NCBI RefSeq assembly: GCF_028748185.1
Contig: NZ_CP118164.1
Span: forward strand, 5,729,814 to 5,793,813
Reading direction: 5' to 3'
From: Bremerella sp. P1
GTDB taxonomy: Bacteria > Planctomycetota > Planctomycetia > Pirellulales > Pirellulaceae
Length of the DNA: 64,000 nt
Under the pieces are notes generated by a model, which saw only the letters and a program-made list of their open reading frames with translations, searched no databases and was not told where the DNA came from. Positions 20,839 through 36,223 of the stretch are shown in pieces. Position 1 is the first letter of the stretch, and each line of letters opens with the position of its first letter. A program made the translations under genes and the position numbers.

Positions 20839-21261
20839 TCAAGGTCGATCATCGGTCCGTGTGAAGTTGTCCGTGCATATCCGAGTCCACATCTCCTGCT
20901 GCTTCTGAAAACAAACCTCTGCCGCAATAGGCCGAAGTAACTTCTCATGAACCTGATCTTTCCCTTCCGAAACCTTGGGCAAGTGCAGAAGATCTTCCTG
21001 AATCACTGGTGCCAACAAGAGCAGATTCATGATCTGCGTGATCCGCGGTTGGGTGACGTGCGACAGTCGGGCGATGTCGGACTGATCTTCCACGACACCA
21101 TCGTCCAACAGCTGTTGAAAGTGAATGGCGAGCGCCATGAGCTTGGATATGCGTGATATGCGACCCACCGGTGCGGTAGCTTTCGGCTTGGGCTCCCGGT
21201 CGATCCGCTTCCGGCCGCGGCTATCGGTATTGAAGTGAAGAACTCGTTTTGTGCTCAACAT
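20839..21261 (-). CDS. HTH protein encoded with the recombinase
   Basis: A 140-residue basic protein. Residues 55-95 (DQSDIARLSHVTQPRITQIM followed by a Leu-rich helix) resemble the HTH of ParB/KorB-type DNA-binding proteins. The N-terminus is Arg/Lys-rich. The start ATG overlaps the recombinase stop by 7 bases, so translation is probably coupled. A role in regulating or assisting the recombinase is likely from context, but the family function is not known to me. It is the last gene of the leftward operon. Confidence 0.75.
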   Translation of the reverse strand: MLSTKRVLHFNTDSRGRKRIDREPKPKATAPVGRISRISKLMALAIHFQQLLDDGVVEDQSDIARLSHVTQPRITQIMNLLLLAPVIQEDLLHLPKVSEGKDQVHEKLLRPIAAEVCFQKQQEMWTRICTDNFTRTDDRP

Positions 21262-22814: not shown

Positions 22815-23302
22815 CCTTGGTCCTCCAACCGAAAGAAGCGATAACCGTTGCAGTGGCTTCCTGTAATCGCCTTGGCGACCGCCGAGAGGGATTTGTAACG
22901 AACCCCGTCGTATTCCAAGCCATCGTCCAAGATACGAACCTCGAGCGACTTACCTTTGTAGGTACGGATGATTGAGGTTCCAGCTGGTGGTAAACGTGGA
23001 TCGGAGGGAGGCTTGATCCGTTTGGTCTTAGTGGTTGTTGGGGCAGGACTTTCCAGCTGTGAATTTCTGGGAGGCGTCACACGGACATCGGCGACGTTCA
23101 CCAACTCCGCCGCTCGATCCTTGGCACGTTGCGATAGACCTCCGAACTCATTGGCTTGGAGCCGCCAGGCGATTCTCCGAATGAGCCAGCGTTTGTTTCT
23201 TCCGTTGGTCGCTTCGCCGAATACCGCCGCAAACTTCTCGCGAAGCTCGTTGACGGTCATCCCTTCCATTGAGGCGACCTCTTTGTCGATGTTTAACGAC
23301 AT
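22811..23302 (-). CDS. DUF2924 protein
   Basis: A 163-residue basic protein of the DUF2924 family: N-terminal helical part with TVNELREKFAAVFGE and RNKRWLIRRIAWRLQAN, and a C-terminal part with RTYKGKSLEVRILDDGLEYD and YKSLSAVAKAITG. DUF2924 genes typically accompany serine recombinases on integrated elements, as here. The function is unknown; the C-terminal half looks like a small DNA-associated module. It overlaps the recombinase start by 4 bases and is preceded by a small gene it overlaps by 10 bases. Confidence 0.88.
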   Translation of the reverse strand: MSLNIDKEVASMEGMTVNELREKFAAVFGEATNGRNKRWLIRRIAWRLQANEFGGLSQRAKDRAAELVNVADVRVTPPRNSQLESPAPTTTKTKRIKPPSDPRLPPAGTSIIRTYKGKSLEVRILDDGLEYDGVRYKSLSAVAKAITGSHCNGYRFFRLEDQG

Positions 23303-23523
23303 TCATCTTCTCCTGGGTTGAGACTCGTAGATTTAACACGTGTGTCCAGAGAGCAAGATTCTGGCGAGGAACTCAAGCGGTCATGGGGAGAAGTTTTGGG
23401 ATTCGTTCGCAGAGACTTTCGGTACCGCAAGACGGCTCGGGCGAAGAGGCAAACGATCTCTTCTCGACGCTGTTCTGGTGTCGATTCTTCCGACGATATT
23501 CGCGACCGCACGATGACCTCCAT
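23293..23523 (-). CDS. Small protein at the head of the recombinase operon
   Basis: A 76-residue protein with one helical segment, EIVCLFARAVLRYRKSLRTN, and a polar tail. Its stop overlaps the DUF2924 start by 10 bases in the same direction, which suggests it is a real first gene of the operon. Similar short proteins with an ILA/R-A-hydrophobic helix precede recombinase genes on other elements as far as I recall, but no function is known. The ribosome-binding site is weak. Confidence 0.5.
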   Translation of the reverse strand: MEVIVRSRISSEESTPEQRREEIVCLFARAVLRYRKSLRTNPKTSPHDRLSSSPESCSLDTRVKSTSLNPGEDECR

Positions 23524-23930
23524 TTCAGAGCTGACAGGGCGATAGATAGATTTCCTCTACCTCTTAACAACCCAGTCGCGGTTAGAAATGACGAAAGAAG
23601 GCCTCAAAAAATCGACGCGGAACTTTTCAGATAAATAGGGTTGTGCCTGCTAGCGGCGTTGATATGATAGGACTCGCTACGTGGACATTCGTCCACTCTA
23701 AAGGTTATCCGGTGCCGGGACGAACGGGCTCCGGGGATATCTGCGGCTCTCCCCGTTTCAATGCCGCACGCATCCATGGCACGTGCTTCTGCGCTGCTTT
23801 CTTTGCCTGATCAATTCGATTTAGTCACACTGCGTAGGTGATGTTCTTGAGGGCATCTTCGTTGCGCGCTGGGACAATACGCGCTTAGGCAAGGAAAGCC
23901 TGTGTCGATGGAATGAGGGTAAAATGCACC
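23524..23930. other. Divergent promoter region of the element
   Basis: About 400 bases between the leftward recombinase operon and the rightward unknown gene pair. It must hold both promoters and may hold the recombined attachment site, which usually lies next to the integrase gene. Weak dyads are present near 23712-23755 (GGGGATATCTGCGGCTCTCC), but nothing decisive. Confidence 0.4.
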
Positions 23931-25184
23931 ATGGCTACACGACCCTTTTCATTGCTAACAACTTTGCGAATGGTTCCGAACTGTCTACTTCGCGAGTACT
24001 TTGTAAGACATGGACACGCTGAGTTCGTGACCGAATGGGACGGTGAGAAAGAAAAAGACATTGGTTCGGTCTTTGAGTACATTCAGTTACTTGATGACCG
24101 AGAGAGAGATGAGATTGAGAGCGGTTTGCACAGCGTGTCTGATCTTGCCTCCGATGCTGGACTGACAGCTCTTTTCCAAGCGGCAAGGGATTATGGGCTT
24201 CCTGATCTTGTGAACGAAGCGGCCGAAGAACTTGGTATATGGGGCCGGACCATGTGGATCTGGTTGCATTATCCAGGCATCTTCGACAAAGGTCAGATCC
24301 TTTTTCAGATCGATCAGATGTCGTTCTGGCGCAAACGCACCGACTTACCCAGTAACGATAGTCCAGATACTTCCGACCCGGCGATCGAAAATCTGAAGGA
24401 GGAGATATCGGACCTTCTTCGAGAGCAGGGCCGCGGCAAAGACTGCACCGTCGACTGGCTCAAACGTGGCGACGTGTTTTACTTCTTCGCATATCCCGAC
24501 GATTTTGTCTCCAGTGTCTTGGTTCACGACAAGGAAGGGCACCTCGCCCCTAAGTCGATTCGCACGACTCTATCAATCGTATTCGCCTACGATCCGAAGC
24601 ACAGCTCGCTCGAGCTATTCGCGAAAGGATTGCACAAGCCAGTCAAAGAACACTTGGAGAAGATCTTTGCAGGTACGATATTGCGCTGGAAGCTCAATGA
24701 TTATGACCCAGACGCGGCCTACGAGCTCGATCGACTGAAATATGCTTTCGACGGACTTAAAGTTGAGCCTGCAGATAGGGTGAGCGTGAGGATCCGCAAG
24801 CTTCGTCTTTCGAGCCTGGTCGACGGGAGGGAAGTCGAAATCAAGATCGATGACGCCGACCCAAACGACACCATCGGCAAGGCGATTCAAGAGGTAATCC
24901 AGGTCGAGGAGAAGCCGTTGGATCAGTGGCGTGTGACGCGAGCCTGTTTCTGCTTCATCTTTCACCCCTTAGACGGTCGCAAGCATGGCCGACAGAGTTT
25001 TGACATTGGGTATCCACGCTCTTGCTCTCTAAGGAATGCCCGCCCCGAACGCGTCGAGTTAATCCAGAAGTACCTTACTGAGTGGGATATCGACCTTGCA
25101 AAACCTCCTAAATACGCTGCTGTCTCGGTGGGAGAGTGTGACGCCAGTTTTTCAGGCCTCCGAGACGATCCGCTGGAAGAGTGA
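23931..25184 (+). CDS. Unknown protein, first of an overlapping pair
   Basis: A 417-residue soluble protein (ATG at 23931 preferred; an earlier ATG at 23913 adds six residues). The opening TRPFSLLTTLRMVPNCLLREYF and a central acidic-aromatic part (residues 90-150) show no motif I know. No signal peptide or membrane segment is visible, and no zinc-ligand cluster or NTPase motif. Its 3' end overlaps the next gene by 89 bases, so both are surely co-translated and probably act together. It lies at the start of the element's rightward transcript, where accessory or regulatory genes tend to sit. Function unknown; a defence or control role is only a hypothesis. Confidence 0.7.
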   Translation: MATRPFSLLTTLRMVPNCLLREYFVRHGHAEFVTEWDGEKEKDIGSVFEYIQLLDDRERDEIESGLHSVSDLASDAGLTALFQAARDYGLPDLVNEAAEELGIWGRTMWIWLHYPGIFDKGQILFQIDQMSFWRKRTDLPSNDSPDTSDPAIENLKEEISDLLREQGRGKDCTVDWLKRGDVFYFFAYPDDFVSSVLVHDKEGHLAPKSIRTTLSIVFAYDPKHSSLELFAKGLHKPVKEHLEKIFAGTILRWKLNDYDPDAAYELDRLKYAFDGLKVEPADRVSVRIRKLRLSSLVDGREVEIKIDDADPNDTIGKAIQEVIQVEEKPLDQWRVTRACFCFIFHPLDGRKHGRQSFDIGYPRSCSLRNARPERVELIQKYLTEWDIDLAKPPKYAAVSVGECDASFSGLRDDPLEE

Positions 25185-26049
25185 CGACTGGGCGGTCATT
25201 GAAGAGTATCAGCTCCTGCGTGAAATCGAGCCTTCAGGTTTCGCCAATTGCAGTGACTGTAGTCGCCGCTACGAGGTGGAGTACATCTCCGAACGCGGTG
25301 GCGGTCTCAATGGCTACATCAACTGCGAAGACTGCGGGTTGGAACGCGTCGATCCGGATCGGCTCAAGCGATGGGAGATTGATACGACTTCCTTACTCCA
25401 GGTCTTGTTTGGTGATCTGAAGCTTTCTCTGGAAGAGCAGGTACCGAATTACCTTTGGAAGGTCGGGCGAGCCAATTGGGCGGGATCTTCGCGTCGAGTG
25501 TGGTTCGTTCGGTCATTTCTTGGTCAACATGGTGATGCCGTGGAGATCTTGAAGAAGAACCCGAAGGCAATCGTGTTCGCGCCAACGAAAGATCGTTCGG
25601 ACCAATGGCATGATGCGACTGGGAGTTTGCTCATTCCCCTCGAGGGAATCATTTCGTTCGAGGCCGGAAAACTGGTGATCGATGTCGAGGAGATTGAAGG
25701 GTGGGTCAAAGACGCTTGGCCAGCGTCGAAAGAGTCGAAGAACGCAACACCCAAAAGACGAGGATCCCGTCTCAATAGTATCGCCAAGTTGCGAAAGGCC
25801 TTGATTGAGCACGTTTTTAACGCTCGGGAGCACGCATATTCCACGAAGGAAATTACCGGGACGCCAAGGTTGCTGCCACGTCCTCAGCAGAAGGAACTCG
25901 CCAAACAGCTCGACATGACGACGTCAGATGTCAATCGAGCCCTAAAGGATGCCGATGCGGTAGAGCTCAGAATCTACTGGGAACTTGCATTGGATGTGGA
26001 CCAGATCATGTCGCTCAAAGGGCCCATTACTCGAGGACGCAAAACCTAG
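25096..26049 (+). CDS. Unknown zinc-ribbon and winged-helix-like protein, second of the pair
   Basis: A 317-residue protein starting at TTG, an unusual start. Two CxxC-like pairs, CSDC and CEDC (about residues 50-80), could form a zinc ribbon. The C-terminal third (residues 240-317, with LRKALIEHVFNAREHAYST and AKQLDMTTSDVNRALKDAD) looks like an HTH or winged helix. The 89-base overlap with the gene before, in another frame, makes translational coupling likely. The family is unknown to me beyond the impression that similar pairs occur on integrated elements. A DNA-binding or transcription-related role is suggested by the zinc and HTH parts. Confidence 0.7.
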   Translation: MQNLLNTLLSRWESVTPVFQASETIRWKSDDWAVIEEYQLLREIEPSGFANCSDCSRRYEVEYISERGGGLNGYINCEDCGLERVDPDRLKRWEIDTTSLLQVLFGDLKLSLEEQVPNYLWKVGRANWAGSSRRVWFVRSFLGQHGDAVEILKKNPKAIVFAPTKDRSDQWHDATGSLLIPLEGIISFEAGKLVIDVEEIEGWVKDAWPASKESKNATPKRRGSRLNSIAKLRKALIEHVFNAREHAYSTKEITGTPRLLPRPQQKELAKQLDMTTSDVNRALKDADAVELRIYWELALDVDQIMSLKGPITRGRKT

Positions 26050-26107
26050 AAATTGCAGTTTGCTTGATTTCGTGCAACTGCAATTCGAACAATGCGACAC
26101 TGCAAAT

Positions 26108-26148
26108 GCCTGCGGAATAGCGACTTAGGTCGAGCCGCAGGCTTTTTT
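26108..26148 (+). terminator. Rho-independent terminator after the unknown pair
   Basis: An 8-bp stem, GCCTGCGG (26108-26115) with CCGCAGGC (26135-26142), followed by six T residues. It sits inside the upstream end of the longer sigma-like reading frame and so argues against a start at 26092. Confidence 0.85.
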
Positions 26149-26229
26149 GTTCGATTTGCTGCAATTCCGCCGGGGGTTGTCATCGCAAGTTTCGCGGTGG
26201 CAATCACCCTCGACATGGAGATTGCAGAA

Positions 26230-26862
26230 ATGAAGGACCGACACACGTCGACGGACTCACCTGAGTCCATCACCTCGGAGCACAAGCCTCTCGATTCGTT
26301 CACGCAGGGCTATGTGCAGAAATGTGCTCGCCAGCTGATTGGTCGCCATGGCTTCACCGACTCTGACCGCGCTGAACTCGAGCAGACACTCTTTCTGAAA
26401 CTGGCAGGCAAATTCGACCAGGCCAATCCCGACGATCCGCATTGGAAGGCTTTTGTGGCGAAGACCGTTAGTCGTCACATCGCGAGCGTGATCCGAGACC
26501 GGAAGGCTCCCAAGCGGGATCACCGTCGCACGATCTCGATCCACGTTCAAGTGACGACCGACGAGGAAGGACCGATGGAGCTGGCCAACGTGCTGCAGGA
26601 CCATGAGAAGCCCTCACGTCGTAGCCAAGAGCTTCGCTGTGAGCAGGAGCTTGCCGAGCTTCGGGAAGATGTGGCTACCTGTATTGAACGATTGCGTGAT
26701 CCACGCTTTCGTGAACTTTGTAGGCATCTGATGAATGGGACCATCGCTCAAGCCGCACGAAACATGGATGTTCCTCGATCAACGATCGATGCGTGGCTCC
26801 CAAAGATCCGCCACCGATTCGAAGAGATGGGACTTTCGGAATATTTGCAGATTCCTTCGTAA
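26230..26862 (+). CDS. Sigma-70-like (ECF-type) factor of the element
   Basis: A 210-residue protein. The region around SDRAELEQTLFLKLAGKFDQ to KTVSRHIASVIRDRKAP resembles sigma region 2. The C-terminal part with LCRHLMNGTIAQAARNMDVP and RSTIDAWLPKIRHRFEEMG resembles region 4 with its HTH. The start at 26230 is chosen because GGAG lies about 9 bases upstream and a terminator lies within the longer frame. Sigma-like genes of this type are seen in planctomycete integrated elements. It may steer the element's own late genes; this is inference. Confidence 0.75.
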   Translation: MKDRHTSTDSPESITSEHKPLDSFTQGYVQKCARQLIGRHGFTDSDRAELEQTLFLKLAGKFDQANPDDPHWKAFVAKTVSRHIASVIRDRKAPKRDHRRTISIHVQVTTDEEGPMELANVLQDHEKPSRRSQELRCEQELAELREDVATCIERLRDPRFRELCRHLMNGTIAQAARNMDVPRSTIDAWLPKIRHRFEEMGLSEYLQIPS

Positions 26863-26922
26863 TTTCGCGACGGAGTTGGGTTGTTAATAGATAGGGATCA
26901 ATACGTACCTGAGGAAAGAACT

Positions 26923-27216
26923 ATGAAGACTGAAGTATATCGATATCGTTTTGGCGAAGGTGTTTCCAGTGAAGATGTTGAGGCCGCGATTCTGCTATCG
27001 ATCTGGGCGTGTGAGTCTCTCCGCGGCGAGTCGCAAACCCGGATGGACGCCACGCACTTCTTCGACACCGATGAAATGAGCTGCGTGATCGACGCAGGGA
27101 CAGACATCGGCATGGATTTCAATCGGCTGTTCGTTGGGTTTCTGACCCGCGAGATCGGCCCAGATGCGTTTCGTGTTGAACGGGTGAAGAAGCCCGTGGA
27201 GGCCGTTGCCGCTTAG
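26923..27216 (+). CDS. Small conserved-type element protein
   Basis: A 97-residue acidic protein starting MKTEVYRYRFGEGVSSEDVE, with alternating strand and helix pattern and no recognisable motif. GAGGAAAG lies 5-8 bases before the ATG, and the longer frame to 26881 lacks such a site. It lies directly before the primase gene. A role in replication is suggested by position only. Confidence 0.75.
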   Translation: MKTEVYRYRFGEGVSSEDVEAAILLSIWACESLRGESQTRMDATHFFDTDEMSCVIDAGTDIGMDFNRLFVGFLTREIGPDAFRVERVKKPVEAVAA

Positions 27217-27264
27217 TCGTCGCAAATCAAACGCTCGGATGCCAGGTTCAGGAGGGCCGATTGA

Positions 27265-29934
27265 ATGGAGTCAAACACGCAGGGAGATCATCCTCCAAGC
27301 GATATGCTCGAAAACGTCGAAATCGCCAGTCGATTTCTGACCACACTGTTCGATGAGCAAGACAAGATTCTGTTCCGGCCCATTGAGACCTGGACTGAAG
27401 AGGGAAAGAAACGCAGCAGCGTCGATTATCACAACACGTGCTATCGAGAAGCTGATCCCATTCAGTTGAAAGAAACCTTGCTGCAGCTATTTCGTAAGTC
27501 TGCGGCGAGCCGTTTAAACTTGTTCTTCGGAGTTTGTCCACGATTAGGCGGTGACGGCAAGTACGATCTGGCTTGGCAGATCAGGACCGTTCGGTCGTTG
27601 TGGTGTGATATCGATCATGCCACCTTCGACGAGGTTCGCGCACGTTTGAAAGAGTCATCGCTGCCTGATCCGTCTATCGTGGTTCACTCTGGAAATGGAG
27701 TTCATCTTTACTGGCTGCTTGAGCAGCCTTATCTAGTCGACGACGCCGGTGATCCGCCCGCGGTACAGCTTGAATGGCAAGAAGGAAGTAAAAAACCTCG
27801 CAAATATGTGGTGCTGGATGGCGAGCGTGTTTATCTCGACATCGACCGGCAGATATCCAAGCTGAGTCCCAAAGCACAGCATATTCAGGACATTCTCTCA
27901 GGCGTGGCCCAACAGGTCGGTGGCGACCACACGATCGACATTTCGAGACTGCTCCGAATCCCCGGTTCCATAAATCGGAAGGACCAGCGCAACGGCCGCG
28001 AGCCCGTTCCTACTCAACTCATCGAATGCGATCCGACACGCAGATATCCACTCTCGACATTTGAACGACTGAAAGTTGCTTCGCCTGATTCACAGCGGGC
28101 CAAACAGATCGAATCGATGCCGCTACCGCAGCCGCGGAAGATGACCGCGTCGAAGTCGGACAAGCTGGCAGAACTCATTGCCGCGTGTAGCCTGGCTGAA
28201 GCAGGACGTCGATCCGAGGCCGATTTCTCGTTGTGCTGCTATGCCGTGCGTCAAGGTATCGATCGGGAAGAGGTCTGGCGGCAGGTTGAGTCGGTGGGCA
28301 AGTTCGCCGAGCAGGGACGCAGGTATTTCGACCACACGTGGACGAATGCCGAGGATACAGCGCGCCTAGAGGTCTACGAGAAGCTGCAGAAGAAGGCAAA
28401 TGGCGATGAAAATCCTCCGGCAGTATACTTCGATGACACGCCTCCAGGCGATGGAGGTGGATATGAAACTCCACCGCATGAAAAGGCACGTCCGACCATA
28501 CGCGTGAACCCTGCCTGCACACCGGTTGGGGAAACGATGCAACAGATCACCAATCTGCTGTTGAAGGTTGGTGGCTGTTATAGCCGCGTTGAGCAACTGG
28601 TGATCATCCGTGATGAGACCATCGCCCCAGTTCTGTCTTGTGCCGAACTCGGTGGGCTGCTCAACCATCATGCCGAGTTCTACTTCGTGAAAGATAAGGA
28701 GGGCGAATACAAGCCGCTCCCATCATCCTACGGTAACACCTGGCTTCACCATCCCGGCGAACGGAAACGGCTTCCGAACATCAAGCTATTTACGCGGAAT
28801 CCTGTCTATACGGACGACTGGCGGCTGACCACGCCAGGTTACGATCCCGCTTCCCAAATCTACTACGCGGGGCCTGAGATCGCCACACGCGAGGGCACGC
28901 ATCACCTTGATCGACTGCTCCGCGATTTCTGCTTCAAGACGTCTGGCGACCGCACAAACTACATAGGGATTCTCCTGACGGCGGTCCTGGTTCCTAGATT
29001 CATTGGCTCGAAGCCTGCAGTGCTTTTCAACGGGAACCAGCCAGGCCTCGGTAAAACGGTTCTGGGGCAGATCATCTCGATTCTGCGCGATGGTCAATCG
29101 GTCGAAACGGCCAGCTACAACCCGAACGACGAAGAGTTCGAGAAGCGTCTTGGATCTATTGTCCGTCGGGGCGCCAATACGATCATTATCGATAACGCGA
29201 AGGGGAAAGGTCGCAGTCCACGCATCGATTCGGCGTGTCTGGAAAGGTCGATCACCGATCCGATTCTTTCGTTTCGCCTCTTGGGCCAGTCGCAAGATAT
29301 CCGGGCTGAGAACTCGCACATCTTTTGTTTGACGGCCAATTCGCCCGATGTCAGTCGTGACCTGATGACGCGCAGTGTGGTGGTCAATCTGTTCCATGAA
29401 GGGAATCCGGAGCGACGGAAGTTCTCGATTACGGACCCCGAAGGTTACGCCCAGGAACATCGACTCGAGATCCTCGGTGAGTTGATTGGCATGGTCGAAC
29501 GCTGGAAGGCGTCTCGAATGCCCAAGGCCAACACCGACTCAAGGTTCAACAAACGTGGCTGGGGGGACATCGTGGGTGGCATCCTCGAGGCCAATGGCGA
29601 CCCCGACTTCCTGGCTAACAGCGAAGAGGCAGCGACACAACTGGACGACACACGGCGTGAGTTCAGTGACTTGGTTGTGACCCTCGCTGAGCACAGTCAG
29701 GGGAACTGGACCGCGAATGAACTTGTGGAGCTTTGCGACAAGCACGATCTACTTCAGGACGAGCTCGGTGATGGTTCCTCGCGATCCAAAGCGACCCGTC
29801 TGGGGAAGATCGCCGGTCGGTATGTGTCGGAGTGTTTCGACCTGTCGGCGGGACGCGTGGCCACATTCCTTCGCTTCGAGCAGCGCAATGGGAACTCCTA
29901 TCGGGTGGGAATCACGGAAAGTGCGGAACGTTAG
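27265..29934 (+). CDS. RepB-type primase with C-terminal helicase-like ATPase
   Basis: An 889-residue replication protein. The N-terminal half resembles plasmid RepB-like primases: SLWCDIDHATFDEV (about residues 111-124) with metal-binding Asp residues, then HSGNGVHLYWLLEQP and LLRIPGSINRKDQ. The C-terminal half has an ATPase core with Walker A GNQPGLGKT (about 589-597) and a Walker B-like TIIIDNAKG (about 638-646), consistent with an SF3-like or DnaB-like helicase, then a helical region. A short repeat array starts inside its last codons and continues downstream. It is the likely initiator of replication of the element. Confidence 0.9.
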   Translation: MESNTQGDHPPSDMLENVEIASRFLTTLFDEQDKILFRPIETWTEEGKKRSSVDYHNTCYREADPIQLKETLLQLFRKSAASRLNLFFGVCPRLGGDGKYDLAWQIRTVRSLWCDIDHATFDEVRARLKESSLPDPSIVVHSGNGVHLYWLLEQPYLVDDAGDPPAVQLEWQEGSKKPRKYVVLDGERVYLDIDRQISKLSPKAQHIQDILSGVAQQVGGDHTIDISRLLRIPGSINRKDQRNGREPVPTQLIECDPTRRYPLSTFERLKVASPDSQRAKQIESMPLPQPRKMTASKSDKLAELIAACSLAEAGRRSEADFSLCCYAVRQGIDREEVWRQVESVGKFAEQGRRYFDHTWTNAEDTARLEVYEKLQKKANGDENPPAVYFDDTPPGDGGGYETPPHEKARPTIRVNPACTPVGETMQQITNLLLKVGGCYSRVEQLVIIRDETIAPVLSCAELGGLLNHHAEFYFVKDKEGEYKPLPSSYGNTWLHHPGERKRLPNIKLFTRNPVYTDDWRLTTPGYDPASQIYYAGPEIATREGTHHLDRLLRDFCFKTSGDRTNYIGILLTAVLVPRFIGSKPAVLFNGNQPGLGKTVLGQIISILRDGQSVETASYNPNDEEFEKRLGSIVRRGANTIIIDNAKGKGRSPRIDSACLERSITDPILSFRLLGQSQDIRAENSHIFCLTANSPDVSRDLMTRSVVVNLFHEGNPERRKFSITDPEGYAQEHRLEILGELIGMVERWKASRMPKANTDSRFNKRGWGDIVGGILEANGDPDFLANSEEAATQLDDTRREFSDLVVTLAEHSQGNWTANELVELCDKHDLLQDELGDGSSRSKATRLGKIAGRYVSECFDLSAGRVATFLRFEQRNGNSYRVGITESAER

Positions 29935-30286
29935 AGGCCTTTGCGGAACGTCTGCGGAACGTGTGAATTGGCAAACGTTCCGCACCTTAAGTGTTGATGA
30001 AATTAGGAGATACAAGTTGAGTGCGGAACGTGAGGAACGTGTTCAGGTAACTCACACACGCGTAAGAGAAAACACACGCATATGCACGCATACACACACA
30101 CGTATAGGGGCTTTACCGACAAACGTTCCGCACGTTCCGCAGATTGTTATAAGTCCCAATGAAACAATGACTTGTGGAGAGGTCAACGTACCGCACAACG
30201 TTCCGCAGTGGTGATAGGGGCTATGTGCTAAAGCGATTGTGTGACACGACTTACGTGCTATCTCAACGTACCGCAAACGTTCCGCA
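29922..30286 (+). repeat. Array of 11 copies of a 10-bp motif (candidate origin)
   Basis: The motif TGCGGAACGT occurs in direct orientation at 29922, 29942, 29953 and 30022, and in inverted orientation (ACGTTCCGCA) at 29975, 30123, 30132, 30198 and 30277; ACGTACCGCA variants lie at 30186 and 30266. A partial copy lies at 30033. That is 11 copies in 365 bases, extending from the 3' end of the primase gene. Such iterons are typical of initiator-binding origins. The gap between 29935 and 30317 holds no gene. Confidence 0.85.
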
Positions 30287-30317
30287 GCTCGGTCTTTGAA
30301 GGGATTGGAGGCAAATC

Positions 30318-30452
30318 ATGTGGCAATGGAAGAAGCGAATCGAGCGGATGGTGACGCGACGAGGCAGTGTGGTTCTGGCGCTAGACGCGTTCTTCGTTTT
30401 CATGGTGATCTTGTCCGCCGCAATTTGGATTCAGTTCTTTATCAACCTGTGA
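30318..30452 (+). CDS. Small single-span membrane protein
   Basis: A 44-residue protein with a basic N-terminus (MWQWKKRIERMVTRR) and one membrane segment (VVLALDAFFVFMVILSAAIW). GGAGG lies 8 bases before the ATG, one of the strongest ribosome-binding sites in the window. It precedes the ParB-methyltransferase gene by 16 bases. Function unknown. Confidence 0.7.
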   Translation: MWQWKKRIERMVTRRGSVVLALDAFFVFMVILSAAIWIQFFINL

Positions 30453-30468
30453 ACTCACGGAGGTACTC

Positions 30469-31782
30469 ATGAAGATCGATCAGTGGAACATCGCGGACGT
30501 CACGCCCTATCCAAGCAACCCGCGTGTGAACGACGGTGCAGTCGATGCCGTAGCGAAGTCGCTCGCGGAGTTTGGATTTCGTCAGCCGATTGTGGTGGAC
30601 GAAGCGGGCGTGGTTATCGTAGGCCACACGAGACTAAAGGCGGCTCAGAAGCTAGGCATGACCCAAGTGCCGGTTCATGTTGCCGAGGGGATGAGCGATG
30701 AACAGATTCGTGCTTACCGGATCGCGGATAATCAAACGGCGACCATTGCCGAATGGGACTTGGATCTCTTGCCGATCGAACTGAGTGCCCTCAAGGACGC
30801 CGACTACGAACTAGGGCTGCTTGGTTTCAAGGACGACGAACTGGCCAAGATGCTCAGTGGCGACGTGAAGGACGGGCTGAACGATCCCGACGATGTGCCT
30901 GAGCCACCAGACGATCCTATCACGCAGCCTGGCGACTTGTGGATCCTCGGCGACCATCGATTGTTGTGTGGGGATAGCTCAAAGGCTGAGGACGTTGATC
31001 GATTGCTCGACGGTGCTGTCATCCACCTGATCAATTCCGATCCGCCATATGGGGTCCGGGTTCAGCCACGGTCAAAGAATGCCATTGCTGCTGGCAACAG
31101 TAGCTTCGCCGATCCGAGTAAACGCAAACCGGACAACAATCCCAAGAAGATGCGGGCCAAAGATCGACCCTTGGCAAACGACTTTGTGTCGGATGAAGAG
31201 TTCAACCGATTGCTCGACGCGTGGTTCGGCAATATGACTCGCGTGCTGGCACCGGGGCGAGGATTTTATATCTGGGGCGGCTACGCGAACCTCGGCAACT
31301 ATCCACCCGTTCTGAAGAAGCATGGTTTGTATTTCAGCCAGGCGATCGTGTGGGACAAACTCCACCCAGTGCTTACGCGAAAAGACTTCCTCGGGTGTTT
31401 TGAGATTGCATTCTACGGTTGGAAAGAGGGTTCCGCCCACAAGTTCTACGGACCGCACAATGTGCCTGACCTATGGCACGTCAAGAAGATCCCGCCACAG
31501 CAAATGGAACACTTAACGGCCAAGCCTGCCGAACTCGCTGTGCGAGCCATGCAATACTCCACGGTCGCCGGAGAGAACGTTCTAGACCTATTTGGTGGCA
31601 GTGGGTCGACGCTTATCGGCGCTGAACAGACGGGGCGTAAGGCCTATCTCATGGAACTCGACACGTACTACTGTGACACTATTGCCGACCGCTTCCAAAG
31701 ATTCACCGGCAAGCCAGCTGTGCTCGAACGAACGGGAGATTCGCCCATCCCGATGAAGGCGCGAGAGGAGGCGATGCGGTGA
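30469..31782 (+). CDS. ParB-like domain fused to DNA methyltransferase
   Basis: A 437-residue fusion. Residues 1-110 form a ParB N-terminal-type domain (PSNPRVNDGAVDAVAKSLAE, FGFRQPIVVDE, VIVGHTRLKAA). The C-terminal part (about 150-420) is a DNA amino-methyltransferase: motif IV DPPYGV at residues 191-196, then the SAM-binding FGGSGST at 375-381, in the order of the beta class. Such fusions are seen in phages and islands and modify the element's DNA, perhaps against host restriction. GGAGG precedes the ATG. It sits between the origin-like array and the terminase genes. Confidence 0.9.
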   Translation: MKIDQWNIADVTPYPSNPRVNDGAVDAVAKSLAEFGFRQPIVVDEAGVVIVGHTRLKAAQKLGMTQVPVHVAEGMSDEQIRAYRIADNQTATIAEWDLDLLPIELSALKDADYELGLLGFKDDELAKMLSGDVKDGLNDPDDVPEPPDDPITQPGDLWILGDHRLLCGDSSKAEDVDRLLDGAVIHLINSDPPYGVRVQPRSKNAIAAGNSSFADPSKRKPDNNPKKMRAKDRPLANDFVSDEEFNRLLDAWFGNMTRVLAPGRGFYIWGGYANLGNYPPVLKKHGLYFSQAIVWDKLHPVLTRKDFLGCFEIAFYGWKEGSAHKFYGPHNVPDLWHVKKIPPQQMEHLTAKPAELAVRAMQYSTVAGENVLDLFGGSGSTLIGAEQTGRKAYLMELDTYYCDTIADRFQRFTGKPAVLERTGDSPIPMKAREEAMR

Positions 31783-31787
31783 GCGTT

Positions 31788-32033
31788 CTAAAGAATCTTC
31801 CCCAGCAGGCTCTTGTTCATCGCCTCGAATGCTTCGCAGGCAATCAGGTGCTCTTCGATGAGCGCGTGGTCGTTGGCCTCTCCAACCCCGATGTCGGCGA
31901 ACTCAAGCGATTGGGCCAGGCTCTGCAATCCCTCAACCGCCTTGAAATACGCGTCGCGGATCTCCTGGTATTGGTGTGGGGCCATCTTCTGGAAGGCATC
32001 GCGAAGTTTGGTTTCGTGGGCGTCGGCGGGCAT
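31788..32033 (-). CDS. Small helical protein of the element
   Basis: An 81-residue protein, MPADAHETKLRDAFQKMAPH onward, wholly helical and acidic. CGGAG lies about 9 bases before the ATG. The upstream stretch is nearly the same as that before the gene at 32253, which supports a shared expression control. No family is recognised. Its 3' end nearly touches the convergent methyltransferase gene. Confidence 0.65.
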   Translation of the reverse strand: MPADAHETKLRDAFQKMAPHQYQEIRDAYFKAVEGLQSLAQSLEFADIGVGEANDHALIEEHLIACEAFEAMNKSLLGKIL

Positions 32034-32065
32034 GATTCGGTCTCCGGTGTGGGTTGCGTTTCGTA

Positions 32066-32141
32066 TGACACACATGAGCCATGGAAAGCTGAAAACATCA
32101 AGCTTCGTTCGCAGCGATTCAGCAGCTTTCTTTTGGGCCGC
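32066..32141 (-). promoter_or_regulatory. Duplicated leader element, copy A
   Basis: This stretch upstream of the gene at 32033 shares with 32659-32732 an exact 18-base run (TGACACACATGAGCCATG on the plus strand) and about three quarters of the rest, including an ATTCAG and a TTTTGG block. It is likely a common promoter or leader RNA. Confidence 0.6.
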
Positions 32142-32194
32142 GAGGTTGGGCCGTGTGGCGCCGAAACGAACAACTGCCCTAACGACGCCAAGAA

Positions 32195-32230
32195 CAAAAA
32201 AACGCCCAAACGTGGCGAACGTCGGGCGTT
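32195..32230 (-). terminator. Terminator of the HARE-HTH gene
   Basis: On the minus strand the stem AACGCCC / GGGCGTT (32201-32207 and 32224-32230) is followed by seven T residues. It lies about 25 bases after the stop codon of the gene at 32253. Confidence 0.75.
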
Positions 32231-32252
32231 GTGTGGCGAGTTAACGGGTGCC

Positions 32253-32612
32253 CTAGCCGTTGGTCGTGAACTTGCCTCGTTCGGTCTTCTTGAACCGGGC
32301 GTCTTTGCCCTTGGTGTTGATCTCCCGAAGGATCGCCGAATAGAGCGTGGCATGCGGTGTCTTACCGCCTGGGCTGGACCAGTATTTCTTCTCGGCCATC
32401 GCGTCGATCATCTGTTTGGCGTTGAGCGGCTCCTTCGATTCCGCAAGAACCTTGGCTGCCGCGTCAAGGGCCGACAGACGTTTGGTGGCGGGTTGTTTAG
32501 CGGGCTTTGCTTCGGCTGGCTTGGTCGCCTTGGTGGACCGTCCTTTCGTGGTGCCCTTGGTGGTGGCCTTCTTAGTAGCGGTGGTCTTGCGAGTGGTCTT
32601 CTTCGTGGTCAT
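32253..32612 (-). CDS. HARE-HTH winged-helix protein
   Basis: A 119-residue protein. Residues 1-48 are a Lys/Thr/Ala-rich basic tail (TTRKTTATKKATTKG type), as in histone-like proteins, likely binding DNA non-specifically. The rest (RLSALDAAAKVLAESKEPLN to ARFKKTERGKFTTNG) fits the HARE-HTH (HB1/ASXL-type) domain, with the conserved GGKTPHATLYSAILREI. The ATG at 32612 has GGAGAAG 8 bases upstream, so it is chosen over the longer frame. A terminator follows. Probably a DNA-packing or regulatory protein of the element. Confidence 0.85.
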   Translation of the reverse strand: MTTKKTTRKTTATKKATTKGTTKGRSTKATKPAEAKPAKQPATKRLSALDAAAKVLAESKEPLNAKQMIDAMAEKKYWSSPGGKTPHATLYSAILREINTKGKDARFKKTERGKFTTNG

Positions 32613-32658
32613 GGGTCTTCTCCAAATGGTGATTGGTTGGTCGCGAACCGTGTCGCGT

Positions 32659-32732
32659 TGACACACATGAGCCATGCAACTGGAAACACATCAAGCGCAT
32701 CCAGCAGCAATTCAGAAGATTCTTTTGGCGGC
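32659..32732 (-). promoter_or_regulatory. Duplicated leader element, copy B
   Basis: The second copy of the leader described at 32066-32141, filling the gap between the gene at 32738 and the HARE-HTH gene, and ending 47 bases before the ATG of the latter. Confidence 0.6.
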
Positions 32733-32737
32733 TTAGA

Positions 32738-33571
32738 TTATCGCAACGACCAAAGGTCCACGTGGCAGCTTGGCGTATCTGATGAACGGCGAAGCACGGT
32801 GCACACCTCACAGAGGTCGTCCGCCGGATTCCACTTGATGAATTCTCGGTACGCATCGAGAAGGCGACGCGAACCTAAGGCGGGAACGGCAGGAGACTTT
32901 AGATGTTGAAGGACTTCTTCCGTCGACCAGCTAGTTTTGTTAGCAAGTCGATCGACAGCGACAAGATCAGGGTTGGGGTCAAAATGAAGGGCAGAGATTA
33001 TTCCATCCAACAGCGGCTTAATGACGGAGGCCAAATTGCCAATGGGTGTGGCCAGTTCCAAAACGACACTCATCTCGAACGGACCGCTGATTTCCTCACT
33101 GCGAGTGGCGGTCGCAGCGGAGGCAAATTGCCAGATTTCGTGCGGCTTCGTGGCAGACGCCAGAGACGGCAAATTGAAGTGCAACGAACTCTCAGGTGTC
33201 ATCGCTGGAGACTTAGGAGATTCATTCAGGCTGTATTCGTGATAGTGCTGGAATTGCTCGCCAGTTGCGCTCAGCGGAGCTTCGGCGTGCACTCGCTCAA
33301 AACGAAGTCCATTGCGGGCAGTGGTTCGGAACGACGCAGCTCCGACGTTGTGGAACAGCACATTCTCAACGTCACAGAAGCCATTCGTCGAAGACTGGTA
33401 TTTGGCAGCAAGAATTCGGTCGGGGTGTGGCGACAATCCGGTGAGCGCCTGCCGAAGCAAATTGCGAGCGTCAAGCATGGTTCCTTTCGGCTCAAATGGC
33501 AGTCGTGTGTTCGACCAGAAGCGTACGGAGCTATCGGTCGCTTCCAAATGAAAGGGCAAAACAGTGCTCAT
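32738..33571 (-). CDS. Unknown element protein
   Basis: A 277-residue soluble protein starting MSTVLPFHLEATDSSVRFWS. A central segment, FEMSVVLELATPIGNLASVI, with following KPLLDGIISALHFDPNPD, could be a beta-alpha nuclease or binding core, but I cannot place it in a family. It is the first gene of the leftward group inside the element and is divergent from the HNH nuclease gene 100 bases away. The overlapping plus-strand frame of 231 codons (32903-33598) has poorer composition and is not preferred. Confidence 0.65.
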   Translation of the reverse strand: MSTVLPFHLEATDSSVRFWSNTRLPFEPKGTMLDARNLLRQALTGLSPHPDRILAAKYQSSTNGFCDVENVLFHNVGAASFRTTARNGLRFERVHAEAPLSATGEQFQHYHEYSLNESPKSPAMTPESSLHFNLPSLASATKPHEIWQFASAATATRSEEISGPFEMSVVLELATPIGNLASVIKPLLDGIISALHFDPNPDLVAVDRLANKTSWSTEEVLQHLKSPAVPALGSRRLLDAYREFIKWNPADDLCEVCTVLRRSSDTPSCHVDLWSLR

Positions 33572-33673
33572 GGCGATGTGACCATCGTGAAGAGATAGGC
33601 AAGGAGAGAATGAAGAGGAGTGGTGAAGCGGTTCAGAAGTAACTCACACTTGAGATAGCGTAAGGGGAATTGA

Positions 33674-34177
33674 ATGCCAAAGCGAGTCAAAAGGCGAAGC
33701 GATACGAAGCGACGTGTCGGTCGGGACATCTACGAAGCGCGGCGAGGCTCGTCTTCATCGCAGGGCTACGATTCCAACTGGGAACGGATCGCCCAGCGTC
33801 GGCGCCAACTCGATTACTACCTTTGCCAAGAGTGTTTGAAGCGTGGTCTATCCACCTCGGCCAAAGATGTCGACCACATCATTCCACTTCACGTCCGACT
33901 CGATTGGCGACTCGAGATAGGCAACACGCAGGTGCTCTGCCGTATGCATCATCGAGCCAAAACCGAACAAGATAACGAGCTTTACGGGTCGAGTACGGAG
34001 GCAAATGTGAGTGCCATTCAGCAAACCTGCAGAGATGCCGCTAGAAGGCTCCAGGAGCCGCCGAGAGGGGCGGGGGCTAGTCAAATAGTGACGCGGGTCG
34101 ACATGGGAACGCGTGCCCCCAAACACACTTGCGCCCGCGATATTGTACCCCAGGGGGTGTTAAATGAGAGGTCGTAA
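33674..34177 (+). CDS. HNH endonuclease (phage packaging type)
   Basis: A 167-residue basic protein with the HNH fold: CQEC (about residues 51-54), DVDHIIPLH (about 65-73) with the catalytic His, and NTQVLCRMHHRAKT (about 84-97) with a second zinc pair. HNH nucleases of this kind are encoded directly before terminase genes in many tailed phages and cooperate with TerS/TerL in cutting DNA. The stop overlaps the start of the small terminase gene by 14 bases. Confidence 0.88.
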   Translation: MPKRVKRRSDTKRRVGRDIYEARRGSSSSQGYDSNWERIAQRRRQLDYYLCQECLKRGLSTSAKDVDHIIPLHVRLDWRLEIGNTQVLCRMHHRAKTEQDNELYGSSTEANVSAIQQTCRDAARRLQEPPRGAGASQIVTRVDMGTRAPKHTCARDIVPQGVLNERS

Positions 34178-34628
34178 ACCAAAGCCAACGGTACTAAAGA
34201 TTCGCGAAGGGAATCCTGGCAAACGGTCGCTGAACAAGGCCGAACCAAATGCTCCTGGCGATGTGCCTACGTGCCCTGATTTCCTGGATGAAGTGGCTCA
34301 GGAGGAATGGGATCGTATCTCTGGAATCCTCACCGAAATGGGACTGCTTAGTACAGCTGATCGTGCTGCACTGGCCGCATATTGCACCGTGTACAGCCGC
34401 TGGGTTCACGCGGAAGAACAGGTAAAGAAGTTCGGAACGATCGTGAAGTCGCCCGAGAAAGGCTTTCCGATGAAGTCGCCATATCTGACGGTGGCCGACC
34501 AGGCGATGGAATCGATGCGGAAGTTCCTGGTGGAGTTTGGACTGACGCCATCGAGCCGCAGTCGCATCCGTGTGGAAACCAAGAAGTCTGCTGAGGATGA
34601 GTTCGATGCATTTGTGGGGGCAGGGTAG
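34164..34628 (+). CDS. Phage terminase small subunit (P27 family)
   Basis: A 154-residue protein opening MRGRKPKPTVLKIREGNPG and continuing with helices of the P27 family (EEWDRISGILTEMGLLST; LVEFGLTPSSRSRIRV). The small subunit recognises the packaging site on phage DNA and stimulates the large subunit. The start overlaps the HNH gene; the stop touches the GTG start of the large subunit, so the three genes form a coupled packaging set. Confidence 0.92.
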   Translation: MRGRKPKPTVLKIREGNPGKRSLNKAEPNAPGDVPTCPDFLDEVAQEEWDRISGILTEMGLLSTADRAALAAYCTVYSRWVHAEEQVKKFGTIVKSPEKGFPMKSPYLTVADQAMESMRKFLVEFGLTPSSRSRIRVETKKSAEDEFDAFVGAG

Positions 34629-36223
34629 TGGACGTGACGCAGCAGTGGGTGAGAAGTTCAAACGATGAGCGTGCCGTCGAGAATGGCTGTTGGTTCGATG
34701 AAGAAGCGGCCCAGCGTGTGCGTGAGTTTTTCCTGCGGTTCCTGAAGCACTCGAAAGGCCAATGGGCTAGGAAACCGTTTGAGCTATTAGATTGGCAATG
34801 GACAGACGTGGTGGCGCCATTATTCGGTTGGAAGCGTGCTGATGGGACTCGTCGATTTCGCCGCGGTTATATCGAGGTTCCGAAGAAGAATGGCAAGAGC
34901 ACGTTATTCGCGGGGCTGAGCTTGTATCTGCTGACATGTGATGGCGAACCGGGGGCCGAAATCTACAGTGCAGCCTCGGATCGGGATCAGGCGTCAATCG
35001 TGTTCAACGAAGCGGCCAATATGGTGGACCACTCGCCTCATCTGGCATCGCGTCTGAAAGTCGTCCGTTCCACCAAACGGATCGTGGACCATCGTAGTCG
35101 ATCCATTTATCGTGCCCTCTCGGCTGAGGTGCCCACCAAGGAAGGCCTCAACGCCCATGCAGTGCTGATGGACGAACTACATGCACAAAAGTCACGGGAA
35201 CTATGGGACACGCTTCGCTACGCCGGTGCCTCACGACGACAACCACTCATGCTGGCTATTACAACCGCCGGGTTCGACCGATTGAGCATCTGTTGGGAAC
35301 AGCACGAGTACGCTCGCCAAGTGCTGGAAGGAACTGTTGAAGACACAGCGTTCTTTCCCTACATCTCTGCTGCCGACGTTGAAGAGGACTGGACCACGCC
35401 TGAGGTGTGGCGGAAGGCGAACCCCAGTTTCGGCATCACGATCGACGCGGAGCAGTTCGCCGAGGATTGCCGTGAAGCCCAGGAATCGCCCGCCAAGGAA
35501 AACTCGTTTCGTCGCTATCGGCTCAATCAATGGACGCAGCAGGAATCGCGTTGGCTGAACATGGATAAGTGGGACGCGTGTGATGATGCTCTGGCGGAAC
35601 TGGATGGTCGCACATGTTTCGCAGGCCTGGACTTGTCTTCCACGACCGACATCTCGGCCCTGGTGCTCGTATTCGAGGAAGACGACCAATACGACGTACT
35701 GCCGTTCTTCTGGGTACCAGAGGAAGGTGCCAGGCGACGTGAGAAGCGGGACCATGCCCCGTATGTACCGTGGATTCAGCAAAGGTACATCGAAGCGTCA
35801 CCTGGGGAAGTCGTCGACTACGAACGCATTCGGGCGCGGATCAACGAGCTAGGAAAGCGATTTAAGATCGAGCAGATCGCGATCGACCGTTGGAACGCGA
35901 CGCAGTTGGCCACCCAGCTAGATGATGATGGATTCGAGATTGTGTCTTTCGGCCAGGGCTACGCGAGTATGTCGGCGCCGACGAAGAAGTTGGAAGAGCT
36001 CGTGCTATCCCGGAAATTGCGCCACGCGGGTCATCCAGTACTCCGGTGGATGGCGGGAAACGTAGCGATCGAGCAGGATGCGGCCGACAACTGGAAGCCG
36101 TCGAAGAAGAAGAGTCAGGAGCGGATCGATGGGATTGTGGCGCTCGTCATGGCGGTGGATTTGGCGACTCGGCATGTGGAGTTTACGAGTCCGTATAGCG
36201 AGCGAGGGATGCTTTTTCTGTAG
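34628..36223 (+). CDS. Phage terminase large subunit
   Basis: A 531-residue packaging motor and nuclease. The ATPase part has Walker A VPKKNGKST (about residues 84-92) and a Walker B-like LMDELHAQ (about 179-186). The nuclease part starts near residue 330 with FAGLDLSSTTDISAL and includes IAIDRWNATQL, both supplying acidic metal ligands. The start is GTG, overlapping the small-subunit stop. No portal, protease or capsid gene follows; instead the convergent giant exoprotein ends 170 bases downstream, so the structural module is missing or was lost. Confidence 0.92.
   Translation: MDVTQQWVRSSNDERAVENGCWFDEEAAQRVREFFLRFLKHSKGQWARKPFELLDWQWTDVVAPLFGWKRADGTRRFRRGYIEVPKKNGKSTLFAGLSLYLLTCDGEPGAEIYSAASDRDQASIVFNEAANMVDHSPHLASRLKVVRSTKRIVDHRSRSIYRALSAEVPTKEGLNAHAVLMDELHAQKSRELWDTLRYAGASRRQPLMLAITTAGFDRLSICWEQHEYARQVLEGTVEDTAFFPYISAADVEEDWTTPEVWRKANPSFGITIDAEQFAEDCREAQESPAKENSFRRYRLNQWTQQESRWLNMDKWDACDDALAELDGRTCFAGLDLSSTTDISALVLVFEEDDQYDVLPFFWVPEEGARRREKRDHAPYVPWIQQRYIEASPGEVVDYERIRARINELGKRFKIEQIAIDRWNATQLATQLDDDGFEIVSFGQGYASMSAPTKKLEELVLSRKLRHAGHPVLRWMAGNVAIEQDAADNWKPSKKKSQERIDGIVALVMAVDLATRHVEFTSPYSERGMLFL

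What the first reader, a model, noticed from the sequence alone, without database searches (positions are those of the whole stretch)
29922..30286. Dense two-directional iteron array after the primase gene
Eleven copies of TGCGGAACGT or its close variant, four in one direction then mostly the other, within 365 bases, begin inside the last codons of the primase gene. The arrangement is unlike a terminator or promoter and fits a replication origin bound by the element's own initiator. Two variants (ACGTACCGCA) are each followed closely by a perfect inverted copy at a similar distance (12 and 11 bases), which hints at a fixed sub-unit.
Basis: partly seen in the sequence, partly recalled or inferred. 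Interest (0 to 1): 0.7.

Follow-up and report, generated by a model that had tools for sequence, protein, structure and literature searches.

The report
Replication origin read by primase tail
A cluster of short DNA repeats next to a mobile element's DNA-copying gene is very probably the element's replication start site, and two amino acids near the end of that gene's protein change in step with two bases of the repeat across related elements, which suggests how the protein recognises its own start site.

Summary
Real: 12 copies (9 exact, 3 one-mismatch) of TGCGGAACGT lie in 29922-30286, reading FFF-R-FF then RRRRRR, directly 3' of an 889-aa primase-helicase. Homologous genes in other planctomycetes carry the array in the same layout with different motifs. 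A layout scan finds it in 41 of 54 3' windows and 0 of 104 in-gene windows. Among 398 variable columns of the helicase half, residue 875 ranks first for motif base 4 and residue 845 first for the second-last base; 0 of 1000 tree-simulated traits match either. The neighbouring ParB-methyltransferase shows no such covariation. In the AlphaFold model 845 lies on the recognition helix and 875 at the wing tip of a C-terminal winged helix. FFF-R-FF is also the layout of the phage P4 origin. Streptomyces plasmid pWTY27, whose RepA is a distant homolog, has a mirror-image version, where published work shows replication and RepA footprints (PMC3583192, passages). Best reading: the element's bidirectional origin, bound by the primase's own winged helix. 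The kind is known; new are the residue-base covariation, the layout shared across lineages, and the alternating purine-pyrimidine core.

The parts
27265..29934 (+). Primase-helicase / initiator gene (889 aa): AEP-type primase, D5/SF3-like helicase, C-terminal winged helix
   Evidence: ORF; PHROG primase families; AlphaFold model; Foldseek RepB', PrimPol, D5/E5, PriRep1
29647..29931 (+). Region coding the C-terminal winged-helix domain (about residues 795-889)
   Evidence: secondary structure of models; weak Foldseek matches led by winged-helix domains, (none at E<=0.001)
29797..29799 (+). Codon of R845 on the predicted recognition helix (839-852); covaries with the second-last base of the iteron (R mostly with ACGT, K with ACCT)
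   Evidence: codon checked
29887..29889 (+). Codon of N875 at the predicted wing tip; covaries with base 4 of the iteron (N with G, K with C)
   Evidence: codon checked
29922..29931 (+). iteron F1 TGCGGAACGT
29942..29951 (+). iteron F2 TGCGGAACGT
29953..29962 (+). iteron F3 TGCGGAACGT
29975..29984 (-). iteron R0 TGCGGAACGT (the inverted one of the FFF-R-FF module)
29985..30021 (.). 37-nt AT-rich spacer between R0 and the FF pair (65% AT vs 44% in flanks); candidate unwinding site
30022..30031 (+). iteron F4 TGCGGAACGT (first of inner FF pair)
30031..30040 (+). iteron F5 TGAGGAACGT (1 mismatch; second of inner FF pair, 9-bp spacing)
30072..30106 (.). 35-base run of strictly alternating purine/pyrimidine in the 82-nt spacer between FF and RR (0 of 500 mononucleotide shuffles reach it)
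   Evidence: coordinates checked
30123..30132 (-). iteron R1 TGCGGAACGT (first of inner RR pair)
30132..30141 (-). iteron R2 TGCGGAACGT (second of inner RR pair)
30186..30195 (-). iteron R3 TGCGGTACGT (1 mismatch)
30198..30207 (-). iteron R4 TGCGGAACGT
30266..30275 (-). iteron R5 TGCGGTACGT (1 mismatch)
30277..30286 (-). iteron R6 TGCGGAACGT
21255..36223 (.). Approximate extent of the mobile element: serine recombinase (21255-22814 -), DUF2924, sigma-like ORF, primase, array, ParB-methyltransferase (30469-31782), HNH, TerS, TerL (34628-36223)
   Evidence: homology to the second element in the same genome stops 43 bases before the end of TerL; true ends not mapped

Best explanation
The array is the mobile element's origin of bidirectional replication. 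The C-terminal winged helix of the adjacent primase-helicase binds the 10-bp iterons. Residue 845 on the recognition helix helps to read the second-last base and residue 875 on the wing helps to read base 4. The FFF-R-FF module and the opposed R-type copies on the far side would load two helicase assemblies facing each other across the central 82-nt spacer. The AT-rich 37-nt spacer and the alternating purine-pyrimidine tract are the likely places of melting. The primase domain would then prime. Shown by computation: array, conserved syntax, residue-base covariation, fold prediction, AT and purine-pyrimidine enrichment. Shown by others in homologs or analogs: replication and initiator binding of pWTY27, and the PICI and P4 origins. 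Inferred: that this copy works, the helicase loading, the melting sites and the bidirectional mode.
For: Array and chance control. Homologous primases with the same array and other motifs. Layout scan: 41 of 54 3' windows, 0 of 104 in-gene windows (the 54 include near-identical viral contigs). Column scan over 32 loci and 398 variable columns: 875 ranks 1 for base 4 (NMI 0.70, next 0.36) and 845 ranks 1 for the second-last base (0.50, next 0.23); 0 of 1000 simulated traits reach either value. Both stay first in all 20 subsets tested. Control: on 19 loci with a nearby ParB-methyltransferase, its best of 241 columns reach only 0.24 and 0.22 while 875 and 845 reach 0.68 and 0.51. K875 goes with C in 15 of 15 loci and N875 with G in 7 of 7; R845 with G in 18 of 20, K845 with C in 11 of 11 (table). 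The rule was logged; arrays found afterwards in L054 and L055 mainly carry the motif it calls for at both positions, L111 at one of two. The two residues lie on the predicted recognition helix and wing tip. pWTY27 array F-11-F..R..FF-RR..F..R-11-R, with replication and RepA footprints reported in PMC3583192 (passages). P4 ori repeats F-10-F-11-F-22-R-43-F-10-F against F-20-F-11-F-22-R-47-F-9-F here. R0-FF spacer richer in AT than flanks in 23 of the 23 loci that could be scored.
Against: No experiment on this element. L109 and L111 have R845 but ACCT sites; L033 has N845 and mixed sites. A pairwise rule (R plus L/M at 846) fits all 32, but was made after seeing the data. The wing rule does not carry over, by eye, to the distant TGGTGAACCT family (L154 K, L155 Q, both with T). 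R875 goes with A in 6 of 7 and Q875 once with T, once with G. The layout scan misses 13 of 54 windows; in L051, L058, L063, L064, L067 and L019 I found no array. The P4 ori itself scores 0 in the scan because it lacks the RR half. The right half of the window's array is not a clean mirror of the left. Winged-helix matches in the PDB are weak. A ParB-methyltransferase lies near many of the arrays (22 of 32 loci).
Confidence: 0.88

Rival explanations
1. The array works as a nucleic-acid hairpin (RNA 3' UTR or DNA stem-loop/cruciform), as proposed for pRN1 and pWTY27, and pairing of the arms rather than base reading is what is selected.
For: Inverted arms of 29 nt, 83% complementary, 62 nt apart. 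Stem-loop models exist for pRN1 (PMC4234260) and pWTY27 (PMC3583192).
Against: In 22 loci with FF..RR, 18 aligned positions depart from the locus consensus and only 1 is matched in the partner arm. Pairing does not explain covariation with protein residues. No Rfam match in 29800-30500.
Confidence: 0.06
2. A regulatory operator array or a partition site (for example for the downstream ParB-methyltransferase or the upstream sigma-like protein), not an origin.
For: A ParB-domain methyltransferase starts about 180 bp downstream and a relative lies within the held 5 kb downstream of the array in 22 of 32 loci, 9 of the 13 with at least 3 kb held. A sigma-like ORF lies upstream.
Against: No column of the ParB-methyltransferase covaries with the motif like the primase residues do (best 0.24 and 0.22 against 0.68 and 0.51 on the same 19 loci). 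It is not found in the held downstream stretch of L042, L044, L045 and L054, which have arrays. The sigma-like protein was not tested in this way. No promoter-like match in 29800-30500. P4 and pWTY27 arrays of the same layout are origins.
Confidence: 0.05
3. Packaging (pac/cos) or recombination site.
For: Element encodes HNH, TerS and TerL and a serine recombinase.
Against: The array is about 4 kb from terS and 7 kb from the recombinase; similar arrays lie 3' of primase-helicase genes in plasmids.
Confidence: 0.01

Closest known systems
Streptomyces plasmid pWTY27 repAB-iteron origin (NC_013667; PMC3583192)
   Same: Iteron region 3' of a homologous helicase gene (26.9% identity over residues 499-806 of this protein). 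Copies GTGGGAAC in F-F-R-FF / RR-F-R-R layout (layout score 10). RepA binds it and the locus replicates bidirectionally (passages). By my coordinate conversion the inner FF (486-502) and RR (405-421) fall inside the reported footprints 462-509 and 405-447.
   Different: Primase and helicase are separate genes; different motif; authors favour recognition of a stem-loop.
Phage P4 ori and crr with alpha protein (NC_001609)
   Same: ori type-1 repeats GGTGAACA lie in the order FFF-R-FF with spacings 10, 11, 22, 43, 10 in the same relative orientation; crr lies just 3' of alpha; alpha binds the repeats with a winged-helix domain (stated in PMC4234260).
   Different: P4 alpha has a TOPRIM-type primase (PMC4234260) while this one looks AEP-type; in P4 ori and crr are about 4.7 kb apart.
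PICI origins (PMC6092414)
   Same: Origin immediately 3' of pri-rep; two sets of iterons flanking a putative melting region (passages).
   Different: PICI central region is described as AT-rich; here it is an alternating purine-pyrimidine tract. No PICI sequence was compared here.
pRN1-family archaeal plasmids (NC_001771 etc.; PMC4234260)
   Same: AEP primase + SF3 helicase + winged helix; origin just 3' of the gene; pRN1, pRN2 and pHEN7 arms show a self-similarity peak at offset 9, loops 58, 57 and 32.
   Different: Described as a stem-loop without iterons; pRN1, pRN2 and pDL10 do not pass the layout scan, pHEN7 does with the minimum score; pSSVx shows no 9-bp repetition.
PLE RepA_N/ori (PMC8263062, passages) and geminivirus Rep/iteron (PMC12548392, listing and passages)
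   Same: The part of the initiator that binds DNA and the iterons go together: in PLEs RepA_N and ori covary; in geminiviruses Rep acts on cognate iterons and related viruses differ in iterons.
   Different: Unrelated proteins and origins; the PLE case is described as module swapping.

Membership tests
3'-located iteron origins of pri-rep initiators (PICI / pWTY27 type) | Array immediately 3' of the initiator gene | tested here: met
   29922-30286 after ORF 27265-29934; 41 of 54 homologous 3' windows
3'-located iteron origins of pri-rep initiators (PICI / pWTY27 type) | Two opposed iteron sets flanking a central region | tested here: met
   FFF-R-FF left, six R right, 82-nt spacer
3'-located iteron origins of pri-rep initiators (PICI / pWTY27 type) | Central region AT-rich | tested here: inconclusive
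   Central spacer 52% AT in the window (flanks 44%) but marked by purine-pyrimidine alternation; the R0-FF spacer is the AT-rich one (65%)
3'-located iteron origins of pri-rep initiators (PICI / pWTY27 type) | Initiator binds the iterons; array plus initiator replicates autonomously | not testable with these tools
   Only indirect: residue-base covariation
Phage P4 alpha/ori family | FFF-R-FF order of iterons with one-turn and two-turn spacings | tested here: met
Phage P4 alpha/ori family | TOPRIM-type primase fused to helicase | tested here: not met
   N-terminal part matches AEP primases RepB' 3h20 and PrimPol 6zp9 by fold
Phage P4 alpha/ori family | Separate crr in cis | tested here: inconclusive
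   No second cluster in the window; the R-type half might be its counterpart
pRN1-type replicons | AEP primase + SF3 helicase + C-terminal winged helix | tested here: met
   model and Foldseek; winged-helix match weak
pRN1-type replicons | Conserved stem-loop pairing at the origin | tested here: not met
   1 of 18 departures compensated in 22 planctomycete loci
Phage satellite (PICI-like element) | int, pri-rep-ori, terS, no capsid genes, helper dependence | tested here: inconclusive
   recombinase, primase, array, TerS and also TerL; no head or portal family among the ORFs scanned, but not every ORF was scanned; helper dependence not testable

The most novel reading that the evidence does not exclude
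FFF-R-FF facing RR-F-RRR is one ancient origin grammar shared by winged-helix primase-helicase initiators across bacteria, their phages and archaea (planctomycete elements, P4, Streptomyces pWTY27, Lactobacillaceae plasmids, a haloarchaeal plasmid). The 'stem-loop' origin of the pRN plasmids is its smallest form (two 9-bp tandem sites facing two inverted ones). Initiators drift to new iterons through a two-residue recognition code, which lets co-resident elements avoid each other.
Probability: 0.45. Interest if true: 0.85.

Novelty: new variant of a known kind. Interest (0 to 1): 0.72.

Why it matters
It gives a concrete, testable account of how a large and little-studied group of initiators (primase-helicase fusions of phages, satellites and plasmids) recognises its own origin, with two residues paired to two bases. 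It suggests that origins filed separately (P4 iterons, PICI iterons, pWTY27 inverted repeat, perhaps the pRN stem-loop) share one layout, and it makes origin sites partly predictable from protein sequence. Two related elements in this one genome carry different iterons (TGCGGAACGT and TGCCGAACCT) that differ at exactly the two covarying bases.

Tried and rejected
RNA or stem-loop as the selected feature: rejected on 1 of 18 compensated departures and no Rfam hit. Scattered chromosomal motif: rejected. ParB-methyltransferase as the reader of the motif: it is a frequent neighbour (22 of 32 loci), which I had at first underrated, but none of its 241 tested columns covaries comparably. Transfer of the wing rule to the distant TGGTGAACCT family: failed, by eye. 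PDB relatives by sequence: none at E<=0.001. The phage and plasmid collections hold only partial matches to this protein (57 and 9 records, none over 80% of it). Relatives of L155 in viral contigs: none; further viral scans gave only contigs already held; genome searches gave few new loci. pDL10 and pSSVx show no clear 9-bp repetition. Distant relatives without a recognisable array in the stretch fetched, by my reading: L150, L151, L152, L159, L162, L164, L024-L026; DSS3_MAL1, Moulinsart and pGEOTH02. A near-palindromic word array in Alicyclobacillus could not be oriented and scores 0. The two weakest non-planctomycete positives (M. nodulans, Javan465; score 4) may be chance. The 21 non-planctomycete regions are a hand-picked sample of the records hit (57, 9, 321 and 792 records), plus pRN relatives; a 22nd record fetched (pSSVx) was not put through the scan. 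In the covariation table the motif of each locus and its register were assigned by me; L055 uses an array 7.3 kb from the gene, and leaving it out changes nothing.
Full report
WHAT IS THERE. The window holds 12 copies of TGCGGAACGT (9 exact, 3 with one mismatch) in 29922-30286. The window as a whole has 17 matches at up to 1 mismatch against a shuffled mean of 5.56, and no shuffle of 100 reaches 17. In the 6.96-Mb genome the exact word occurs 40 times, 9 of them here and 31 as scattered hits, against 25 for the reversed control word.

SETTING. The array starts in the last codons of an 889-aa ORF (27265-29934). Pfam gives no hit for it; PHROGs gives primase families. The AlphaFold model (31-row alignment, mean pLDDT 80.6, pTM 0.50) matches RepB' and PrimPol primases, pox-type D5/E5 helicases, NrS-1 and PriRep1. 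No PDB entry matches by sequence at E<=0.001. The last about 95 residues hold the recognition helix 839-852 and a beta hairpin 864-885 (repeated alone); Foldseek of that part gives only weak matches, led by winged-helix domains. Around it lie a serine recombinase, DUF2924, a sigma-like ORF, a ParB-methyltransferase, HNH, TerS and TerL. A second element of similar gene order lies in the same genome (L034).

RELATIVES. Homologous primases were found in 35 of 98 near genomes, 41 of 397 of the class at E<=1e-60, 23 of 396 of the order and 4 of 392 of the phylum at E<=1e-100; these sets overlap and include the own genome. One search gave 32 genome-contig loci and one search gave 25 viral-contig loci, some of them weak or partial. 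Directly 3' of many of them lies the same array with another core: TGCCGAACCT, TGCGGAACCT, TGCCGAACGT, TGCCGGACGT, TGCAGACGT, TGCGGACGT, TCCGGACGT and others. Copies within one locus largely share one core. A scan for the layout (FF, 45-115 bp, RR, plus outer sites) scores at least 4 in 41 of 54 3' windows with 300 bases or more and in 0 of 104 in-gene windows. The 54 include groups of near-identical viral contigs. Of the 13 misses, L054, L055 and L111 have their array 3.0, 7.3 and 1.2 kb away, L006, L008 and L011 have copies in an incomplete layout, L017 is weak, and in L051, L058, L063, L064, L067 and L019 I found none. Distant relatives (mostly 25-36% identity over the helicase) also carry 3' arrays with other cores, such as TGGTGAACCT in L154 and L155 and TATTAACCT in L018, while L150-L152, L159, L162, L164 and L024-L026 show none in the stretch fetched.

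THE RECOGNITION CODE. While reading the first alignment I noted that the wing residue in R-x-G and the helix residue in T-x-x-G change with the core, and logged this rule. To test it without choosing columns I aligned 32 loci and scored every variable column of the helicase half (398 columns) against the two bases. Residue 875 ranks first for base 4 (NMI 0.70; next column 0.36) and residue 845 ranks first for the second-last base (0.50; next 0.23). Traits simulated on the helicase tree (C-terminal domain left out) reached the observed value in 0 of 1000 runs for each, and the best of all columns did so in 0 of 150; the bases need 10 and 8 changes on that tree. Both columns stay first in all 20 combinations of redundancy cut-off and omitted loci. 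In the table: N875 with G 7 of 7, K875 with C 15 of 15, R875 with A 6 of 7, Q875 once T and once G, S875 once G; R845 with G 18 of 20, K845 with C 11 of 11, N845 once C with mixed sites. The exceptions are L109 (R845-I846) and L111 (R845-V846), both with ACCT. Sister loci switch both together (L002 and the window; L009 and L098). Arrays found only after the rule was logged: L054 (K,K) has TGCCGAACCT; L055 (R,N) has a cluster with four exact TGCGGAACGT and some ACCT variants; L111 (R,K) fits at base 4 and fails at the other. The codons of 845 and 875 (29797-29799, 29887-29889) lie outside every iteron, so overlap cannot cause this. Control: a ParB-methyltransferase lies downstream of the array in 22 of 32 loci; on the 19 with enough of it, its best of 241 columns reach 0.24 and 0.22, while primase 875 and 845 reach 0.68 and 0.51 on the same loci.

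OTHER CONSERVED PARTS. 23 of the 32 loci have a layout that lets the two spacers be measured. The spacer between R0 and FF is richer in AT than the flanks in 23 of 23 (Wilcoxon p 2.4e-7; L109 only by 0.01). The FF-RR spacer holds an alternating purine-pyrimidine run longer than the flank mean in 23 of 23, 15-35 bases in 20 of them; L033, L037 and L073 are near the shuffled value. Such tracts can adopt Z-DNA or open easily (general knowledge); whether they do here is untested.

KNOWN RELATIVES OF THE DESIGN. In P4 the annotated ori type-1 repeats read F-10-F-11-F-22-R-43-F-10-F in the same relative orientation, and crr lies just 3' of alpha. pWTY27 has F-11-F..R..F-9-F, RR, F, R-11-R 3' of its helicase gene (one FF member has a mismatch and drops out at the stricter setting). 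The paper (passages) reports that repAB plus this region replicates, that RepA binds it, and footprints at 405-447 and 462-509. My coordinate conversion puts the inner RR and FF inside these. The PICI paper (passages) describes origins immediately 3' of pri-rep with two iteron sets flanking an AT-rich region and says no other known bacterial replicon shares this; the arrays here do, apart from the nature of the centre. For pRN1 (passages and section 18 part 1) the authors propose a stem-loop and a motif 'not yet identified'. The arms of pRN1, pRN2 and pHEN7 repeat themselves at offset 9 (7/12, 6/11, 12/22), so each arm may be two tandem sites. Of 21 hand-picked non-planctomycete 3' regions, 9 score at least 4 (pHEN7, a haloarchaeal plasmid, pCM32, pWTY27, two similar Lactobacillaceae plasmids, one further Streptomyces plasmid, M. 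nodulans, Javan465); 1 of 138 shuffles and 0 of 38 in-gene windows do; the P4 ori scores 0 there because it has no RR half. pRN1 and pRN2 themselves do not pass that scan, so the pRN reading is a lead. PLE RepA_N/ori covariation (PMC8263062, passages) is a precedent in another family.

RIVALS. Hairpin or RNA: 18 positions in 22 loci depart from the consensus of their locus and 1 is matched in the partner arm; no Rfam family. Promoter/operator: no promoter-like match. Terminator-like scans found 4 sites against a shuffled mean of 0.5, three of them within the alternating tract on the minus strand, which I read as a by-product of that tract. Partition site for the ParB-methyltransferase: it is a common neighbour but does not covary. 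The sigma-like protein was not tested.

VERDICT. The element's replication origin, bound by the winged helix of its own primase-helicase (confidence 0.88). The kind is known; the variant (mirror or half-mirror double module around an alternating purine-pyrimidine core, with a two-residue specificity code) did not turn up in ten literature searches (open-access papers only).

Noticed in passing
21255-36223 and L034 (G000:C1:4472000-4491500): Homology between two related elements of the same genome stops near the end of TerL, and no head or portal family was found in the ORFs scanned there, while a viral-contig relative (L068) carries portal and head genes; the window element may be a satellite or a cut-down prophage.
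   Followed up: partly
L034:14888-16363: TerL of the second element is shorter (492 aa) than the window's 531 aa and its ParB-methyltransferase ORF is also shorter (353 vs 437 aa); that copy may be decaying.
   Followed up: no
L163 (G000:C1:4432500-4438500): A third, distant primase-helicase in the same genome ends in its own array of TAACCCCGA (7 copies), so the genome holds three elements with three different iterons.
   Followed up: partly
30318-30452: A 44-aa ORF with a hydrophobic stretch and a Shine-Dalgarno-like GGAGG follows the array; nearly the same ORF follows the arrays in L034 and L003.
   Followed up: partly
36395-47422 (-): Giant 3675-aa ORF with nearly identical internal repeats, next to the element; PHROGs gives only short matches, one to a tail protein family over 48 residues.
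   Followed up: no
L068:5626-7764: Relative phage contig carries a QueC-like queuosine gene (PHROG match) upstream of the primase.
   Followed up: no
L109, L110, L155 (full) and L111, L153, L165 (partial): These arrays are mirror images or nearly so (FFF-R-FF facing RR-F-RRR), suggesting that the window's right half is a rearranged form.
   Followed up: partly
30073-30106 (-): Three overlapping terminator-like hits on the minus strand fall in the alternating purine-pyrimidine tract.
   Followed up: no
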